A stretch of 64,000 nt of DNA. Origin: a virus. The DNA lies in IMG/VR virus record IMGVR_UViG_3300037504_001229, positions 26,580-90,579 of that record. One strand, written 5' to 3'. The position numbers and the translations under genes are program-made. Of the stretch, positions 2,848 to 47,525 are shown one piece after another; positions within the stretch are counted from its first letter, which is position 1, and the number at the start of each line of letters is the position of its first letter. A model generated the notes under the pieces. It was not told where the DNA came from and did not search any database. It saw only the letters and a program-made list of their open reading frames with translations.

Positions 2848-3108
2848 ATGAAAACAATTAAGGTTTTGTCAAAAAAGTATGGTGATTTTGAAGTTAGACT
2901 TAGTAGAGAAGATTATTCTAAAGTAAAAGGTCTTCCTATTGGAGTAAAGACAGAGGGCGGAACAAAAAGAACTTTAGTTCCGTATCTTTACGAAAAGGGT
3001 AAACAGAAGCAACTTTCTTCCTACCTTTTTGGAAACAAAGGTAGAGTTATTAGTTACAAGGACGGAGATCATTTTAATCTTACAAGATCTAACGTAAAGG
3101 TTGTATAA
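2848..3108 (+). CDS. Small protein with HNH-like C-terminus
   Basis: An 86-residue basic protein preceded by AAGGAG. The C-terminal 25 residues (YKDGDHFNLTRSNVKVV) resemble the end of the phage HNH/AP2 module, where a GDxxNxxxSNL-like stretch follows the catalytic His. The usual DH pair and the zinc Cys pairs are missing, so it is probably not an active nuclease. It may be a DNA-binding remnant. It is the first gene of a promoter-led operon. Function unknown. Confidence 0.6.
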   Translation: MKTIKVLSKKYGDFEVRLSREDYSKVKGLPIGVKTEGGTKRTLVPYLYEKGKQKQLSSYLFGNKGRVISYKDGDHFNLTRSNVKVV

Positions 3109-42959: not shown

Positions 42960-42977
42960 TAGAGAAGGATAAAGAGT

Positions 42978-43050
42978 GGGGCTATACGTATAATGGCTAG
43001 TACATCTGACTTTCGATCAGAAGATCCCGGTTCGATTCCGGGTAGCCCTA
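42978..43050 (+). tRNA. tRNA-Glu (UUC)
   Basis: 73 nt cloverleaf. Acceptor GGGGCTA pairs with TAGCCCT (one G-U pair); anticodon loop CTTTCGA with TTC anticodon; T-arm CCCGG/CCGGG with loop TTCGATT. A 3-bp D stem GTA/TAC is normal for Glu. CCA not encoded. Confidence 0.9.
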
Positions 43051-43073
43051 TAGAAAATTTTTTCAAAAAATAC

Positions 43074-43102
43074 TTTAAATTTTATTCAAAAAAGTATATA
43101 AT
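43074..43102 (+). promoter_or_regulatory. Promoter, CTTTAAA class, before the tmRNA-like RNA
   Basis: TTTAAA (43074-43079), 17 bp with TCAAAAAAGTA, TATAAT (43097-43102). It drives the unit holding the small ORF 43122, the tmRNA-like RNA and the 43399 gene. Confidence 0.82.
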
Positions 43103-43121
43103 ATATATAGAGGAGAAAGAA

Positions 43122-43276
43122 AATGATAAAAATAAGTAGAGCAGTATCAGGGCGTAATATACCGGGGTTTAAAGACTATTGGAGACCAAAGTTGTTAAAT
43201 TCCATATCTAGAAAAGCAACTGATCCAAAAATCTATGCTTGGCTATGGTGGAACATACTAATAAAGAGGGGATGAG
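43122..43276 (+). CDS. Small Trp-rich ORF overlapping the tmRNA-like RNA
   Basis: 50 residues after an AGGAG site, basic with a Trp-rich end (IYAWLWWNILIKRG). Its last nine bases overlap the acceptor stem of the 43268 RNA. It is the only clear start for a protein directly downstream of the promoter. Might be real or a leader peptide. No family recognised. Confidence 0.5.
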
Positions 43277-43348
43277 AGTGGCTTCGACTTTTTCTAAGAC
43301 CCGCAAAGGGTACGAGAAAGGAACTGGGTTCGACCCCCAGCATCTCCA
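43268..43348 (+). ncRNA. Minimal tmRNA-like RNA: tRNA-like domain without an mRNA-like domain
   Basis: The 81-nt RNA has a 7-bp acceptor stem GGGGATG (43268-43274) / CATCTCC (43341-43347), including G3-U70, the alanine identity pair, plus discriminator A. Instead of a D-arm it has GAGAGTGGCTTCGAC, which matches the tmRNA 5' signature GG-TTCGAC. The T-arm is CTGGG/CCCAG with loop TTCGACC. In place of a reading frame and pseudoknots there is a short helix TTTTTCT/AGAAAGG capped by an ACCC-GCAAA-GGGT hairpin. A complete bacterial tmRNA is several times longer. Confidence 0.7.
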
Positions 43349-43398
43349 AAGGCTACGTTGTAGCTGGCAAATATTTTATTTAAATGGAGGACATTATT

Positions 43399-43800
43399 AT
43401 GTCTAACAAAATTGATTTCATTAGTGCACGGGCTGAAAGTATCTGCAAGGGAAAGGGTCGTGTCCATGGAGATTTCTACTTTCAGTATTCTACCAAGTCC
43501 CCAAAAAATAGGAACGGGGTTATGAATGTTTATATGAGCCCCGCTATTGCTAAAGCAGCTGATCTTAGGGAAAATGATATGGTAGATTGTGGCTTTCACC
43601 CTAAGACTGGAAAAGTTGTAGTAGCAAGGATTACTGACAAAAATCAGAGGCATTCACTTCTTAGGTATACTCCTAACAATAAGAGACTACGGTTTTCCTT
43701 TACACCGAGTGAGGAGTTTGTTAAAAGATTGTTTCCTAACGGTGAAACAATTTATGAACCTTCTAAGGTTCAGCCTAATCATGAGTTTATTCTCATTTAG
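43399..43800 (+). CDS. Hypothetical basic protein
   Basis: 133 residues from the ATG at 43399, chosen because GGAGG lies just upstream; an in-frame ATG at 43384 is too close to it. Segments KIDFISARAES and FTPSEEFVKRLFPNG. Codon use is noticeably richer in G/C than neighbours. It lies between two structured RNAs, so it may be an RNA-associated protein, though no motif proves it. Confidence 0.75.
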   Translation: MSNKIDFISARAESICKGKGRVHGDFYFQYSTKSPKNRNGVMNVYMSPAIAKAADLRENDMVDCGFHPKTGKVVVARITDKNQRHSLLRYTPNNKRLRFSFTPSEEFVKRLFPNGETIYEPSKVQPNHEFILI

Positions 43801-43818
43801 GAAATAGGTTATTATGCG

Positions 43819-43973
43819 GCAGGATTCCACGGAGGAAGGTCGGGGCATTGATGCCCTAATATGTGCGACCCACTTCAGATACAGTGGAGCGGAGGCGAAA
43901 GCAAAGATGTGACGAAGCTGTATACAGTGAAACCCTTCGATAGTTTATAGTAGTTTATTTCTTGGGATCCTGC
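43819..43973 (+). ncRNA. P1-closed structured RNA with RNase P-like conserved motifs
   Basis: A 10-bp closing stem GCAGGATTCC (43819-43828) / GGGATCCTGC (43964-43973). Directly inside is GGAGGAAGGTCGGGGC, two changes from the CR-I box of RNase P RNA (GAGGAAAGTCCGGGC). Further on, AAAGATGTGACGAAG and TACAGTGAAACCCTTC line up with the CR-IV and CR-V boxes (AGA-AATGA, ACAGAA). Hairpins GGGCA-TTGA-TGCCC, CCACT/AGTGG and CGAAG/CTTCG are also present. The specificity domain of a normal bacterial RNase P RNA is absent. Identity is tentative. Confidence 0.4.
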
Positions 43974-43982
43974 TTTATTATT

Positions 43983-44055
43983 TGGTCTGTAGCTGAGTTG
44001 GTACAGCACCTGACTGTTAATCAGGAGATCGATAGTTCGAGTCTATCCAGACCAG
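43983..44055 (+). tRNA. tRNA-Asn (GUU)
   Basis: 73 nt. Acceptor TGGTCTG/CAGACCA, D stem GCTG/CAGC, anticodon stem CCTGA/TCAGG with loop CTGTTAA (GTT). Discriminator G. CCA not encoded. Confidence 0.92.
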
Positions 44056-44072
44056 ATAGGAGTTTTTCATGA

Positions 44073-44474
44073 ATGAAAAAACTTATTGAATGGATAAAAA
44101 ATGCACCTTTAGAAGAACTTACAAAAGAATTAGAATCATGTGGAGTTGAATTTATGGAAGAAAAAAAATATGTAACGATTACTTTAAACTTAGAGTTAAA
44201 ACTTATACATCAATTGTATGGATTTGCTATTGCATACAACACTACAATAGATGAAGTAATAAATATGATGCTAAAAGAATATATAGAAAAGCATCCTATA
44301 AAAGGAGAAGTTAATAAAAAAGGAATAGAAATTTGTGAATGGAAATGGGATGAGTCATTACGTAGAGGATATGGGGGGTATAAAACTTCTTGTGGGGTTA
44401 TTTCTTCCCATTCAAATTTTCCTTCTTATAATTGTAGGTTTTGTGGTAGAGAAAAAAGGGAAATAGAAAATTAG
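44073..44474 (+). CDS. Hypothetical protein with C-terminal cysteines
   Basis: 133 residues. The N-terminal 80 are helical (EWIKNAPLEELTKELE), followed by a region with Cys residues and a final CRFCGR pair that could bind zinc with an earlier Cys. Its stop codon shares the first base of the tRNA-Arg gene. Unknown. Confidence 0.7.
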   Translation: MKKLIEWIKNAPLEELTKELESCGVEFMEEKKYVTITLNLELKLIHQLYGFAIAYNTTIDEVINMMLKEYIEKHPIKGEVNKKGIEICEWKWDESLRRGYGGYKTSCGVISSHSNFPSYNCRFCGREKREIEN

Positions 44475-44550
44475 GCCCCATAGCTCAGTGGAATTAAAGA
44501 GCAGTTGACTTCTAATCAACAGGTCGAAGGTTCGAGTCCTTCTGGGGTCG
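44474..44550 (+). tRNA. tRNA-Arg (UCU)
   Basis: 77 nt. Acceptor GGCCCCA/TGGGGTC (one G-U), D stem GCTC/GAGC, anticodon stem GTTGA/TCAAC with loop CTTCTAA (TCT) for AGA codons, which are common in this AT-rich genome. Discriminator G. Confidence 0.92.
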
Positions 44551-44599
44551 AAAAAGAATAAAAATATAGATTATTTAAAATAATAGAGGTTAAAAAATT

Positions 44600-44749
44600 A
44601 TGTTACATAAAAAGATTACAATTGAAGAAATAAGAAAATCAATAGAAAATCAACTTGAAGAAATCATTGAGATGCATAAGAAAATACGTGCTGGCACATA
44701 CAAACCAGAGTCAAAAGTCGATGTGATAGGAGAAAAAAATGTTACATGA
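44600..44749 (+). CDS. Hypothetical small protein
   Basis: 49 residues, mostly helical and charged (EEIRKSIENQLEEIIEM). The ATG has AGAGG nearby. It overlaps the next gene by 11 bp, with both starts reading ATGTTACAT, suggesting a local duplication of the start region. Unknown. Confidence 0.6.
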   Translation: MLHKKITIEEIRKSIENQLEEIIEMHKKIRAGTYKPESKVDVIGEKNVT

Positions 44750-44951
44750 GAAAATGACGAGAGAGGAAGTTTATAAAAATGGAGATTTAATTATTGAAAG
44801 AATTGCTGATGTAATTTTTAATCCTAAATATGATACAGAGGATTCAGATTATGCAGTACAACTATTTTTTGAATATATTATAAATTTTCAGGATAGTTAT
44901 ACAAAAGATGATCTTAAACTAGCATTATATAGTCTTTGGAATAAATACTAA
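44739..44951 (+). CDS. Hypothetical small protein
   Basis: 70 residues, acidic and helical (DSDYAVQLFFEYIINFQD), with the AGGAG site inside the previous gene. Its start resembles that of the preceding gene. No family recognised. Confidence 0.68.
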   Translation: MLHEKMTREEVYKNGDLIIERIADVIFNPKYDTEDSDYAVQLFFEYIINFQDSYTKDDLKLALYSLWNKY

Positions 44952-44975
44952 TGAATAATTTTAATGGAGGAAAAA

Positions 44976-45173
44976 ATGAAAGAACAAATTGATCAAGTAA
45001 TTCAATTTGCTAATTTAGCAGCAGAATCTGCTATAACTAATAAGATACCTAGTGTAACTGCAAAACTTGCTAAAGAGTATTTTAAAGAGTTTAAGGAAGT
45101 TGGGTTTAACGAGAAACAAGCATTTATTATGGTTAAGGAACTTATAAGCCAAGGAATTTTTCCTAGGGAGTAA
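44976..45173 (+). CDS. Conserved small helical phage protein
   Basis: 65 residues from ATG 44976, preferred over 44964 because GGAGG precedes it at the right spacing. The pattern LAKEYFKEFKEVGFNEKQAF, then MVKELISQG, occurs in unnamed phage proteins. Probably a small helical adaptor; role unknown. Ends 6 bp before tRNA-Leu. Confidence 0.72.
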   Translation: MKEQIDQVIQFANLAAESAITNKIPSVTAKLAKEYFKEFKEVGFNEKQAFIMVKELISQGIFPRE

Positions 45174-45179
45174 ACGATA

Positions 45180-45268
45180 TGCCCAAGTGATGGAATGGGA
45201 TACATGCCAGACTTAAAATCTGGTGCTCATAATATAGAGATTGGGGGTTCAAATCCCTCCTTGGGCAA
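45180..45268 (+). tRNA. tRNA-Leu (UAA)
   Basis: 89 nt class II tRNA. Acceptor TGCCCAA/TTGGGCA, anticodon stem CCAGA/TCTGG with loop CTTAAAA (TAA), and a long variable arm. Discriminator A. Confidence 0.93.
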
Positions 45269-45277
45269 TAAGTGTAA

Positions 45278-45349
45278 GGATCATTAGTTCAGAAGTTAGA
45301 ACAGAGGATTGTCGATCCTCAGACACGAGTTCGATTCTCGTATGGTCCG
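45278..45349 (+). tRNA. tRNA-Asp (GUC)
   Basis: 72 nt. Acceptor GGATCAT/ATGGTCC (one T-G pair), D stem GTTC/GAAC, anticodon stem GAGGA/TCCTC with loop TTGTCGA (GTC), T-loop TTCGATT. Discriminator G as expected for Asp. Confidence 0.92.
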
Positions 45350-45353
45350 ATAA

Positions 45354-45438
45354 GGGAAGTTGGCAGAGTGGTCAATTGCACCAGACTGTAAATCTGGCGT
45401 CCTAACGGGCTACGAAGGTTCGAATCCTTCACTTCCCA
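45354..45438 (+). tRNA. tRNA-Tyr (GUA)
   Basis: 85 nt class II tRNA with a long variable arm. Acceptor GGGAAGT/ACTTCCC, anticodon stem CCAGA/TCTGG with loop CTGTAAA (GTA). Discriminator A. Confidence 0.93.
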
Positions 45439-45466
45439 ATAAAAAATTTTTATAAGGAGAAAGAAA

Positions 45467-45643
45467 ATGGATACGGAAGTTTCGTTGGAAGTAGAACTTA
45501 CAGATGGAACCGAAAGGAGCTACAGTAGTGTGAAAGGTTTTAAGATCGAGTATACAGGATCGTTATTGTCTTTCAAGTTTAACGGAATAACTTATTACAT
45601 TCCTACTTGTAATATAGTTTGTTTTAAAACAGAAAAAGTTTAA
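45467..45643 (+). CDS. Small beta-rich hypothetical protein
   Basis: 58 residues after AAGGAG, probably a small all-beta domain (VSLEVELTDG, FKIEYTGSLLSFKFNG). It lies between tRNA-Tyr and tRNA-Gln. No family recognised. Confidence 0.68.
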   Translation: MDTEVSLEVELTDGTERSYSSVKGFKIEYTGSLLSFKFNGITYYIPTCNIVCFKTEKV

Positions 45644-45649
45644 AAAGTT

Positions 45650-45720
45650 TGACCTATCGTATAATGGTAGTACACAGGGTTTTGGTCCCTGAGGTGGTGG
45701 TTCGATTCCATCTAGGTCAG
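45650..45720 (+). tRNA. tRNA-Gln (UUG)
   Basis: 71 nt. Acceptor TGACCTA/TAGGTCA, D-arm GTA/TAC, anticodon stem CAGGG/CCCTG with loop TTTTGGT (TTG). Discriminator G. Confidence 0.9.
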
Positions 45721-45768
45721 TATTTGCATAGATAATACCTAGGCAATTTTATTTATGTAGATAATGCT

Positions 45769-45834
45769 TATAGTACCGAGGGGAATATGGGCGGTAGGGA
45801 ATGGAGAGGTAGCTCCTTTCGAGTAGGTACTATA
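45769..45834 (+). ncRNA. G-rich structured RNA, possibly a degenerate tRNA
   Basis: A perfect 9-bp closing stem TATAGTACC (45769-45777) / GGTACTATA (45826-45834). Inside, CGAGGGG pairs with CCTTTCG (two G-U pairs), and a TTCGAGT segment resembles a T-loop. The G runs (GGGG, GGG, GGG) are unusual in this AT-rich DNA and could form a quadruplex. No anticodon arm is evident. Either a decayed tRNA or a separate structured RNA. Confidence 0.45.
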
Positions 45835-45844
45835 TAGTATTTTT

Positions 45845-45919
45845 GGGCATTTAGCTCAGTATGGTAGTAGCAACGCCCTTTTAAGGCGTAGGTCCTAGGT
45901 TCAAATCCTAGAGTGCTCA
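45845..45919 (+). tRNA. tRNA-Lys (UUU)
   Basis: 75 nt. Acceptor GGGCATT/AGTGCTC with two wobble pairs, anticodon stem ACGCC/GGCGT with loop CTTTTAA (TTT), T-arm CTAGG/CCTAG. The D stem is short (GCT/AGC). Discriminator A. Confidence 0.88.
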
Positions 45920-45923
45920 ATAT

Positions 45924-45994
45924 CTCCTGATAACCAAGTGGTAAGGTGATAGATTGCAAATCTATTTTCGTAGGTTCAATTCCTACTCAGGAGT
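45924..45994 (+). tRNA. tRNA-Cys (GCA)
   Basis: 71 nt. Acceptor CTCCTGA/TCAGGAG, anticodon stem ATAGA/TCTAT with loop TTGCAAA (GCA), T-arm GTAGG/CCTAC. Discriminator T, the normal Cys identity base. Its 3' 22 nt recur in the broken tRNA at 46436. Confidence 0.92.
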
Positions 45995-46067
45995 TTAATG
46001 TAACATTATAAATTGTAATGTAACATCTATGATGTTAATAAGTAAAAAATAATGTTAAGGAGGAAAT

Positions 46068-46427
46068 ATGGGATTAAATATTTTTGGTTCTAATTGCAAA
46101 TGTAATTCGGTACCTTTTACAACTGTGGACAAAATTTCTAATGTAACAGGTAATCCTAATCCTAGAAACTTTGAGATTATTAAACTTAAAGAAATAGGAA
46201 AGTTTACTATAGCAGAAATTAAATACCCTGATTGTAATAATTATGAAGGACACAAAATATTATTATTTTATAATGTTAGAGAAGAGACAATTAGAAACTA
46301 TGATTTTTTAGACCCTCATTTTTGTGATAATAAAAAACATCTTTCTCCTATTGCAAGATTTGATCCTGAAATAGGTTGGAAGATGGCAAAGTTTTTTGCA
46401 GAGAAATTTATGGAAGAGTTAAACTAA
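46068..46427 (+). CDS. Hypothetical protein
   Basis: 119 residues after AAGGAGG. Early Cys residues (FGSNCKCNS) and later PDCNNYEG might bind zinc. Segments KIISNVTGNPNPR-like stretch and ARFDPEIGWKMAKFFAE. It lies among tRNAs. Unknown. Confidence 0.68.
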   Translation: MGLNIFGSNCKCNSVPFTTVDKISNVTGNPNPRNFEIIKLKEIGKFTIAEIKYPDCNNYEGHKILLFYNVREETIRNYDFLDPHFCDNKKHLSPIARFDPEIGWKMAKFFAEKFMEELN

Positions 46428-46435
46428 TATATTAT

Positions 46436-46507
46436 GCCCCTTTCGTATAATGGCTATTATAAGGGATTTCCAATCCAAAGATATCAGTTCAATTCCTACT
46501 CAGGAGT
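46436..46507 (+). pseudogene. Broken chimeric tRNA: Gly-like 5' part with tRNA-Cys tail
   Basis: The 5' two thirds (GCCCCTT, GTATAATGG D-arm, loop TTTCCAA with TCC anticodon) are Gly-like, similar to the intact tRNA-Gly at 47110. The final 22 nt (46487-46508) are identical to 45974-45995 of tRNA-Cys. The acceptor halves and T-stem halves do not pair, so it cannot fold correctly. This looks like recombination between two phage tRNA genes. Confidence 0.8.
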
Positions 46508-46522
46508 TAAAGGAGAACAAAA

Positions 46523-46666
46523 ATGAATAGAGAAGAAAAGAAATCTAAATATTTTTGTAGTACTTGTAGAAGAGAAGTAGATGATCCTCATAAAGATGTT
46601 AATGGAAAGGTTATTATTTTCCGTTGTCCTTTATGTGGGGAAGAAGTGGGGAGAAGAATGAAATGA
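46523..46666 (+). CDS. Small zinc-ribbon protein
   Basis: 47 residues after AAAGGAG. Two CxxC pairs (CSTC and CPLC) about 25 residues apart make a zinc ribbon, with a basic end (GRRMK). Its stop overlaps the start of the deformylase. Probably a nucleic-acid or protein-binding knuckle; unknown. Confidence 0.68.
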   Translation: MNREEKKSKYFCSTCRREVDDPHKDVNGKVIIFRCPLCGEEVGRRMK

Positions 46667-47109
46667 AACTTGTTAAACCAATAGAAGTAGAATATATAGA
46701 TTGTAAACCTGTATCTTCTGCTGATGCTAAACGAATACTAGAATATGATGTTCCAGATATGATTAAAATTGCAGAAGAACATGAGGGAGTAGGATTGGCT
46801 GCACCTCAAGTAGGAATAAGGAAAAGATTTTTTGTAATGAAATTTAACGAAGAGTGGAGAACTTTTTTTAATCCCACTTTAGTAAAAATAGATAATACTA
46901 AAATAAAGGATAAGGAAGGATGTCTTAACTACGAAAAAGGAAAAAAGTTTGTAGAAGTTAAGAGATTTAAAAGAGTTATGCTTATATATGAAGAATGGAG
47001 TAGTGTAAAAGAAACACTAGTAAAAAGAAAGGGAACCTTTTTTGATTTTGATGCAAGAGTAGTTCAACATGAGGTAGATCATTTAAATGGGAAAACTATA
47101 TTTGTATAA
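46663..47109 (+). CDS. def: Peptide deformylase
   Basis: 148 residues from the ATG at 46663, the ATGA overlap with the upstream stop; a longer TTG start at 46624 would not fit the family. All three motifs are present: GVGLAAPQVG (about 42-51), EGCLNY (about 85-90, metal Cys) and QHEVDH (about 135-140, metal His/Glu). It removes N-formyl groups from new proteins. Phage deformylases occur in marine and other viruses. Adjacent to tRNAs and with a GGQ protein elsewhere, it suggests a translation-support role. Confidence 0.92.
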   Translation: MKLVKPIEVEYIDCKPVSSADAKRILEYDVPDMIKIAEEHEGVGLAAPQVGIRKRFFVMKFNEEWRTFFNPTLVKIDNTKIKDKEGCLNYEKGKKFVEVKRFKRVMLIYEEWSSVKETLVKRKGTFFDFDARVVQHEVDHLNGKTIFV

Positions 47110-47180
47110 GTCAGTATGGTGTAATGGTAACATTAGAGATTTCCAATCTCAAGCTGAGGGTTCAATTCCCTCTACTGACT
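47110..47180 (+). tRNA. tRNA-Gly (UCC)
   Basis: 71 nt. Acceptor GTCAGTA/TACTGAC, anticodon loop TTTCCAA (TCC), T-arm GAGGG/CCCTC. One A-A mismatch in the anticodon stem. Starts 1 bp after the deformylase stop. Discriminator T. Confidence 0.88.
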
Positions 47181-47181
47181 T

Positions 47182-47253
47182 TGTAGGGTAGAGCAGTGGT
47201 AGCTTATCGGTCTCATAAGCCGATGGTCGCTGGTTCGAATCCAGCCCCTGCAA
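47182..47253 (+). tRNA. tRNA-Met (CAU) or Ile2
   Basis: 72 nt. Acceptor TGTAGGG/CCCTGCA (one T-G), anticodon stem TCGGT/GCCGA with loop CTCATAA (CAT), T-arm GCTGG/CCAGC. The anticodon CAT could be Met or, with lysidine, Ile. Discriminator A. Confidence 0.88.
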
Positions 47254-47254
47254 A

Positions 47255-47373
47255 AGAGTAGTTTTTGAGGTTTGCATGTTTCCGTGAGTAAAACCGGGTT
47301 TCACCTAAAGGGTAGCCTAAAGCTTGATCAACTTTAGGAAAAAGACATGAACCTAAAGTACCCTAACTACTCT
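47255..47373 (+). ncRNA. Structured RNA with probable pseudoknots, family unknown
   Basis: A perfect 9-bp closing stem AGAGTAGTT (47255-47263) / AACTACTCT (47365-47373). Inside: hairpin CCTAAAG/CTTTAGG (47316-47322 with 47332-47338), AGGGTA/TACCCT (47309-47314 with 47359-47364) and CATGT/ACATG (47275-47279 with 47345-47349). The last two cross each other, so at least one pseudoknot is implied. It sits between tRNA-Met and tRNA-Thr. No known family recognised by eye. Confidence 0.6.
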
Positions 47374-47378
47374 TATAT

Positions 47379-47450
47379 GCCCTTTAAGCATAAATGGTAA
47401 TGCACTGGACTTGTAATCCTGGTAAGGGGGTTCGATTCCCTCAAAGGGCT
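47379..47450 (+). tRNA. tRNA-Thr (UGU)
   Basis: 72 nt. Acceptor GCCCTTT/AAAGGGC, anticodon loop CTTGTAA (TGT), T-loop TTCGATT. One T-T mismatch in the anticodon stem. Discriminator T, less usual for Thr. Confidence 0.87.
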
Positions 47451-47452
47451 CT

Positions 47453-47525
47453 GTGACCATAGCTCAGGCGGAAGAGCAGAAGATTGTGATTCTTCAGGTC
47501 GGGGGTTCGATTCCCCTTGGTCACC
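47453..47525 (+). tRNA. tRNA-His (GUG)
   Basis: 73 nt. Acceptor GTGACCA/TGGTCAC, anticodon stem GAAGA/TCTTC with loop TTGTGAT (GTG), T-loop TTCGATT, discriminator C as in His. The -1 position is T rather than the encoded G usual in bacteria, so G-1 would have to be added or be absent. Confidence 0.88.

What the first reader, a model, noticed from the sequence alone, without database searches (positions are those of the whole stretch)
43268..43348. An 81-nt tmRNA-like RNA without its mRNA-like domain
The sequence shows a tmRNA-type tRNA-like domain: acceptor stem with G3-U70 (the alanine identity pair), the GG-TTCGAC signature that replaces the D-arm, and a normal T-arm with TTCGACC. Where tmRNA has its reading frame and pseudoknots there is only a short helix with a capping hairpin. 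Known biology: a few mitochondrial tmRNAs have lost the reading frame, but I know of no phage RNA of this kind. Inference: it may be an alanylated decoy that binds SmpB, EF-Tu or AlaRS and dampens host trans-translation, or a partner of a coding piece elsewhere.
Basis: partly seen in the sequence, partly recalled or inferred. Interest (0 to 1): 0.88.

Follow-up and report, generated by a model that had tools for sequence, protein, structure and literature searches.

The report
Phage tmRNA stripped of its message
This phage carries an 81-nucleotide RNA that is only the tRNA-like half of the bacterial ribosome-rescue RNA (tmRNA); about a hundred or more phage contigs in varied gene settings carry the same stripped-down RNA and keep its alanine-charging mark, which suggests phages use it to interfere with, or bypass, the host's clean-up of stalled ribosomes.

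Summary
Confirmed. Window 43268-43348 (+) is a complete tmRNA tRNA-like domain (TLD): 7-bp acceptor stem with G3-U70 and A73, GG-TTCGAC box, capped helix 2, T-arm. It has no message domain or pseudoknots. It exceeds Rfam's tmRNA threshold (50.3 vs 47 bits); ARAGORN misses it. Pattern scans gave 120 distinct relatives, mostly in viral contigs, from about 70 neighbourhood groups. U70 (119/120), A73 (120/120) and the SmpB-contact adenine (117/119) are kept although the search pattern did not demand them, while the stems vary with compensation (99.6% of pair cells paired; shuffled 72%). Unannotated copies occur in isolated Streptomyces phages (BRock, GiJojo, LuckySocke, pSt2308, Shaeky; diverged in Karimac). 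No SmpB was found in 28 phage records; 28 of 29 lack a Phage_integrase domain and a full tmRNA. So the kind is known; its breadth and conserved charging signature seem new. Most likely it is charged with alanine, occupies host SmpB/EF-Tu and stalled ribosomes, and diverts them from tagging. Template-free alanine addition is a live rival. No function was tested here.

The parts
43268..43348 (+). TLD-only tmRNA (mini-tmRNA), 81 nt, 5' G1 to discriminator A73
   Evidence: RF00023 50.3 bits over cut-off; model R1 74.5 bits (the window is one of the 25 training sequences); fold
43268..43274 (+). acceptor stem 5' strand GGGGATG (G3 of G3-U70 at 43270)
   Evidence: sequence; alignment A2, pair counts
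43280..43288 (+). GG-C-TTCGAC box, the D-loop equivalent of tmRNA
   Evidence: sequence; alignment to RF00023
43288..43294 (+). helix 2, 5' strand
   Evidence: covariation of helix 2 across relatives; fold
43299..43311 (+). capping hairpin ACCC-GCAAA-GGGT that stands where the mRNA-like domain and pseudoknots would be
   Evidence: fold
43314..43320 (+). helix 2, 3' strand
43322..43322 (+). adenine equivalent to E. coli tmRNA A334, which packs against SmpB Trp122
   Evidence: 117 of 119 relatives have A here; contact from PMC8363625; the mapping of the numbering is mine
43324..43340 (+). T-arm CTGGG-TTCGACC-CCCAG
43341..43348 (+). acceptor stem 3' strand CATCTCC (U70 at 43344, fourth base counted from 43341) and discriminator A73
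42977..43051 (+). tRNA-Glu(UUC), first of 13 same-strand tRNAs (42977-47525); probably processed from the same transcript (inference)
   Evidence: ARAGORN, Rfam
43123..43275 (+). small unnamed ORF (50 codons, ATG 43123 to TGA 43273-43275) whose stop overlaps the first 8 nt of the RNA gene
   Evidence: read directly from the sequence; no PHROG match

Best explanation
The phage makes a minimal tmRNA that consists of the tRNA-like domain alone. Shown by comparison: it has the sequence and covarying structure of a TLD, and such RNAs are kept under selection in many phage lineages with the alanine identity pair G3-U70, discriminator A73 and the adenine that contacts SmpB. Inferred from the known biology of these elements: it is trimmed from a tRNA-type transcript, given CCA by the host, charged by host AlaRS, and bound by host SmpB and EF-Tu-GTP. 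It then enters stalled ribosomes in place of the host's tmRNA. Because it has no resume codon or tag frame, it cannot tag the nascent chain. The net effect is to compete with, and so damp, host trans-translation: phage products stalled on damaged or cleaved mRNAs are not tagged for proteolysis and host SmpB is tied up. The conserved charging signature suggests that the job needs the alanylated form on the ribosome or on EF-Tu, not just passive SmpB binding.
For: TLD structure and Rfam score. Covariation. 119/120 G3-U70 and 120/120 A73 over 38 different acceptor stems, neither U70 nor A73 being in the search pattern. A334 equivalent kept in 117/119; SmpB Trp122 contacts A15, U17 and A334 (PMC8363625). 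Phage records lack SmpB (0 of 28), so host SmpB is the available partner; in 7 of the 8 cellular assemblies with a copy, a host tmRNA of about 350-400 nt is present too. A very similar artificial RNA (5' 25 nt and 3' 34 nt joined by UUCG) was used for the TLD-SmpB crystal structure (PMC3929946). The DS6A TLD-only RNA, or a similar molecule, inhibited tmRNA when expressed in E. coli, reported as independent of charging (PMC4131195; PMC11915505).
Against: Reported inhibition did not need alanine charging, so the conserved G3-U70 is not explained by simple SmpB titration. Streptomyces phage Karimac carries a full tmRNA and a TLD-only RNA together, awkward for a general inhibitor, though its TLD has a decayed D-loop box. 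No transcript, charging, SmpB binding or phenotype data were available here. The window's host is unknown and no close relative of the window phage was found.
Confidence: 0.52

Rival explanations
1. Template-free alanine donor. Ala-TLD-SmpB enters stalled ribosomes, takes the nascent chain onto its alanine, moves to the P site, and further Ala-TLDs add more alanines or the chain is released by a peptidyl-tRNA hydrolase-type activity. The phage thus frees ribosomes and leaves a short alanine tail instead of the host's degradation tag.
For: SmpB with a TLD fragment supports polyalanine synthesis without a template in vitro (Shimizu and Ueda 2006, as cited in PMC3929946). It explains why charging (G3-U70, A73) is kept in 119-120 of 120. 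Mitochondrial tmRNAs without a reading frame are kept together with SmpB and are thought still to help (PMC11915505).
Against: No in vivo evidence known to me; release of the chain would need another factor; the DS6A RNA acted as an inhibitor in E. coli.
Confidence: 0.2
2. Decoy for a host defence or toxin that attacks tRNA, Ala-tRNA or tmRNA (a nuclease or an aminoacyl-tRNA modifying toxin).
For: It sits in phage tRNA clusters in part of the cases (27 of 113 loci have a tRNA within 1.5 kb, in 26 of them all on the same strand); phage tRNAs are known to counter anticodon nucleases (own knowledge).
Against: It has no anticodon; the conserved free positions are those for AlaRS and SmpB rather than a general tRNA surface; most loci fetched have no tRNA nearby.
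Confidence: 0.1
3. Remnant or attachment-site copy: a decayed tmRNA gene, or an attP that carries the end of the host ssrA gene.
For: ssrA is a common integration site; mycobacteriophage Shandong1 carries a tmRNA 3'-end-like match beside its integrase.
Against: attP copies keep only one gene end (R1 finds no TLD in the Shandong1 stretch); here both ends and all stems are kept with compensatory changes; 28 of 29 records have no PF00589 integrase; lengths cluster at 77-82 nt across lineages.
Confidence: 0.03
4. Half of a split tmRNA whose coding piece lies elsewhere.
For: Permuted two-piece tmRNAs exist in marine phages (PMC9004378; apparently Ruegeria phage RpAliso here).
Against: Both TLD ends lie on one RNA and helix 2 is closed by its own hairpin; no second tmRNA piece and no permuted-form match in the 90.6-kb record. 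The record may be incomplete.
Confidence: 0.03

Closest known systems
Mycobacteriophage DS6A TLD-only ssrA (Mao et al. 2009; listed as 'TLD only' in PMC4131195)
   Same: Phage-borne tmRNA consisting of little more than the TLD; reported to inhibit endogenous tmRNA in E. coli.
   Different: Single reported phage case; its sequence could not be fetched here, so its helix 2 cap could not be compared.
Standard tmRNA (Rfam RF00023)
   Same: TLD with G3-U70, GG-TTCGAC, T-arm, helix 2, GGA linker.
   Different: No mRNA-like domain, no resume codon or tag frame, no pseudoknots; 81 nt instead of about 350.
Mitochondrial tmRNAs without mRNA-like region (jakobids and others) and the about 65-bp plastid forms of Mallomonadaceae
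   Same: TLD kept, reading frame lost (PMC11915505).
   Different: Organelle genes; mitochondrial ones are mostly permuted; unrelated genome setting.
Artificial TLD constructs used with SmpB (for example the RNA of PDB 2CZJ)
   Same: Acceptor, D-loop, helix 2 capped by a small loop, T-arm; enough for SmpB binding (PMC3929946).
   Different: Designed in the laboratory; the phage version has a longer capped arm, usually with an A-rich internal loop.
Two-piece permuted phage tmRNAs (Melnitz, pelagimyophages)
   Same: Phage-borne ssrA (PMC9004378).
   Different: Permuted, two-piece, with a coding piece.

Membership tests
tmRNA (RF00023) | tRNA-like domain with G3-U70, GG-TTCGAC loop and T-arm | tested here: met
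tmRNA (RF00023) | mRNA-like domain with resume codon and tag frame | tested here: not met
   Only 31 nt between the helix 2 ends, all stem-loop; no conserved Ala-codon-to-stop frame across relatives (23 of 120)
tmRNA (RF00023) | pseudoknots | tested here: not met
   About 290 central model positions deleted
tmRNA (RF00023) | charging by AlaRS and binding of SmpB | not testable with these tools
TLD-only (MLD-less) tmRNA, as in phage DS6A | complete unpermuted TLD, no coding sequence, in a phage genome | tested here: met
TLD-only (MLD-less) tmRNA, as in phage DS6A | inhibits endogenous tmRNA when expressed | not testable with these tools
   Reported for DS6A only
two-piece permuted tmRNA | TLD 5' and 3' ends on separate RNAs in permuted gene order | tested here: not met
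   Gene order is unpermuted and contiguous; no RF04321 match in the record
canonical tRNA | anticodon arm and D-arm | tested here: not met
   No ARAGORN call and no reported RF00005 match at 43268-43348; GG-TTCGAC replaces the D-arm
attP copy of ssrA | one gene end only, next to an integrase | tested here: not met
   Both ends complete; no PF00589 in G000

The most novel reading that the evidence does not exclude
A widespread class of natural TLD-only phage tmRNAs works in the charged form on the ribosome: with host SmpB it adds alanine to stalled nascent chains without any template, giving phages a rescue route that leaves no degradation tag.
Probability: 0.2. Interest if true: 0.92.

Novelty: new member of a known kind. 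Interest (0 to 1): 0.68.

Why it matters
The 2025 tmRNA database lists only 9 unpermuted tmRNAs without a coding sequence among 97,179 (PMC11915505), and one phage case is discussed. Here 120 distinct sequences from about 70 neighbourhood groups show a common phage gene class that ARAGORN missed in the window, that public records leave unannotated in Streptomyces phages, and that Rfam matches but does not set apart. The almost fixed G3-U70 makes a sharp prediction (the RNA must be charged) that separates SmpB titration from action on the ribosome. Isolated phages of Streptomyces lividans, S. mirabilis and S. [quoted passage not shown]

Tried and rejected
Chance: rejected (36 of 37 loci of the first scan keep an unsearched 3' acceptor strand; covariation). 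attP or remnant: rejected. Two-piece tmRNA: rejected. Hidden tag frame inside the cap: no conserved frame. Phage SmpB partner: none in 28 records. Nearest relatives of the window phage: nothing by DNA or with the DnaB-type protein, terminase 22-27% identical to the listed isolates, one distant deformylase match, so synteny in close relatives could not be tested. DS6A record not held. Folding energy alone was not informative. Promoter and terminator scans gave nothing beyond chance level. Plasmids: only two partial matches. Literature searches for other phage TLD-only RNAs found none beyond DS6A.

Full report
WHAT IS THERE. Window 43268-43348 (+) reads GGGGATG-AGAGT-GGCTTCGAC-(helix 2 with cap)-GGAA-CTGGG-TTCGACC-CCCAG-CATCTCC-A. 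Rfam's tmRNA model aligns to it from end to end with about 290 central positions deleted, at 50.3 bits against a cut-off of 47. ARAGORN does not report it. The MFE fold gives the acceptor stem, helix 2, capping hairpin and T-arm. It starts 216 nt after the end of tRNA-Glu, at the start of a cluster of 13 same-strand tRNAs. The whole record is a 90,579-bp virus contig; no other tmRNA-type piece over cut-off is found in it, and the part outside the window has no Rfam hits at gathering scores.

IS IT REAL. A strict pattern (GGGG..G.....GG.TTCGAC, 20-50 nt, GGTTCGA..CC) in IMG/VR returned 37 loci; 36 have the same architecture and a complete 7-bp acceptor stem although the 3' strand of that stem was not in the pattern. 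Scans with GGGT, GGGA and GGGC at the 5' end and one scan of prokaryote genomes brought the set to 198 loci including the window; after removing chance matches and adding isolates there are 120 distinct RNAs with 38 different acceptor stems. By shared neighbouring protein families 113 of them fall into 68 groups (short contigs may split groups, so 'about 70 lineages' is approximate). Most lengths are 77-82 nt.

WHAT SELECTION KEEPS. The pattern fixed G1-G3, G7, GG.TTCGAC and GGTTCGA..CC, so those prove nothing. Free positions do: U70 opposite G3 in 119 of 120, A73 in 120 of 120; the adenine corresponding to E. coli A334 in 117 of 119. For the 120-set acceptor pairing was partly a selection criterion, but G-C at 3-70 would have passed as well as G-U, and it occurs once. 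On 25 sequences, 99.6% of pair cells are standard pairs against 72.2% in shuffles and at most 58% when the partners are slid; five of six helix 2 pairs have changes on both sides. Outside its training set, model R1 scores relatives at 43-78 bits and other sequences at about 34 or less. The third-pair G-U is the mark recognised by AlaRS (PMC8363625), and the same paper places SmpB Trp122 in a pocket formed by A15, U17 and A334. So the sequence evidence points to an RNA that is selected to be charged with alanine and to be seen by SmpB.

WHERE IT OCCURS. In the fetched viral loci the RNA is often the only tRNA-like gene; 27 of 113 have a tRNA within 1.5 kb, and in 26 of those all nearby tRNAs are on the same strand. 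Isolated phages with a copy not annotated as such inside their tRNA arrays: Streptomyces phages BRock, GiJojo, LuckySocke, pSt2308 and Shaeky. Alone3, Riptide, Karimac and Jollison have copies with a decayed TTCGAC box but an acceptor stem with G3-U70. Karimac also has a full tmRNA about 11.5 kb away. In Cellulosimicrobium cellulans MP1 the RNA is in a prophage (portal, head, tape measure, endolysin genes) about 28 kb from the host's own full tmRNA. The Sinomicrobium bin contig carries terminase, portal and tail genes near its copy. None of 28 phage records encodes SmpB; of 29 records, 28 have no PF00589 integrase and 28 have no full-length tmRNA.

HOW IT MOST LIKELY WORKS. Inference: charged by host AlaRS, held by host SmpB and EF-Tu, delivered to stalled ribosomes, unable to supply a tag frame; it competes with and damps host trans-translation. 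Precedent: the TLD-only RNA of mycobacteriophage DS6A, or a similar molecule, inhibited tmRNA in E. coli, reportedly whether or not it could be charged (PMC4131195; PMC11915505; the primary paper, Mao et al. 2009, is not held). That report makes the near-absolute conservation of G3-U70 interesting, because SmpB titration alone should not need it. The rival that explains charging best is template-free alanine addition, shown in vitro for a TLD fragment with SmpB (cited in PMC3929946). I put the competitor model at about 0.5 and the alanine-donor model at about 0.2.

KNOWN OR NEW. The kind is known: DS6A, mitochondrial and plastid forms; the 2025 database counts nine unpermuted tmRNAs without a coding sequence. 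The window RNA is a new member of that kind. What appears new is that it is a broad phage gene class with a conserved charging signature. Papers outside the open-licence library were not searched, so prior reports cannot be excluded.

LIMITS. No expression or biochemical data; host of the window phage unknown; contigs may be incomplete; the strict pattern undercounts diverged members.

Noticed in passing
L219 / MH590599.1 86164-86244 and 97752-98030: Streptomyces phage Karimac carries both an annotated full tmRNA and an unannotated TLD-only RNA with a decayed D-loop box; Jollison has the same TLD-only copy.
   Followed up: partly
L067 / NZ_JAFGYF010000003.1 128568-128646 (+): Prophage of Cellulosimicrobium cellulans MP1 with a TLD-only RNA and five tRNAs, close to the host's full ssrA gene (tag ADNKRTDFALAA).
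   Followed up: partly
L152, positions 5-81 and 1317-1392: One viral contig carries two different TLD-only RNAs 1.2 kb apart; the first has a T-loop that departs from TTCGA.
   Followed up: no
L089, L094, L113, L166: Shorter forms of 63-67 nt with a plain helix 2 hairpin and no A-rich internal loop, perhaps separate reductions.
   Followed up: no
helix 2 cap in most relatives (for example L014, L022, L141): A recurrent A-rich asymmetric internal loop (GAAAG on the 5' side, A-A-C on the 3' side) under a 3-bp capped stem; its role is unknown.
   Followed up: partly
window 46624-47109: Peptide deformylase gene within the tRNA cluster, another phage gene acting on nascent proteins.
   Followed up: no
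L046 / OR257569.1 about 2874-3060: Ruegeria phage RpAliso appears to carry an unannotated permuted two-piece tmRNA.
   Followed up: no
L218 / KY945355.1 33138-33189: Mycobacteriophage Shandong1 has a tmRNA 3'-end-like stretch just upstream of its tyrosine integrase, probably an attP in ssrA.
   Followed up: no
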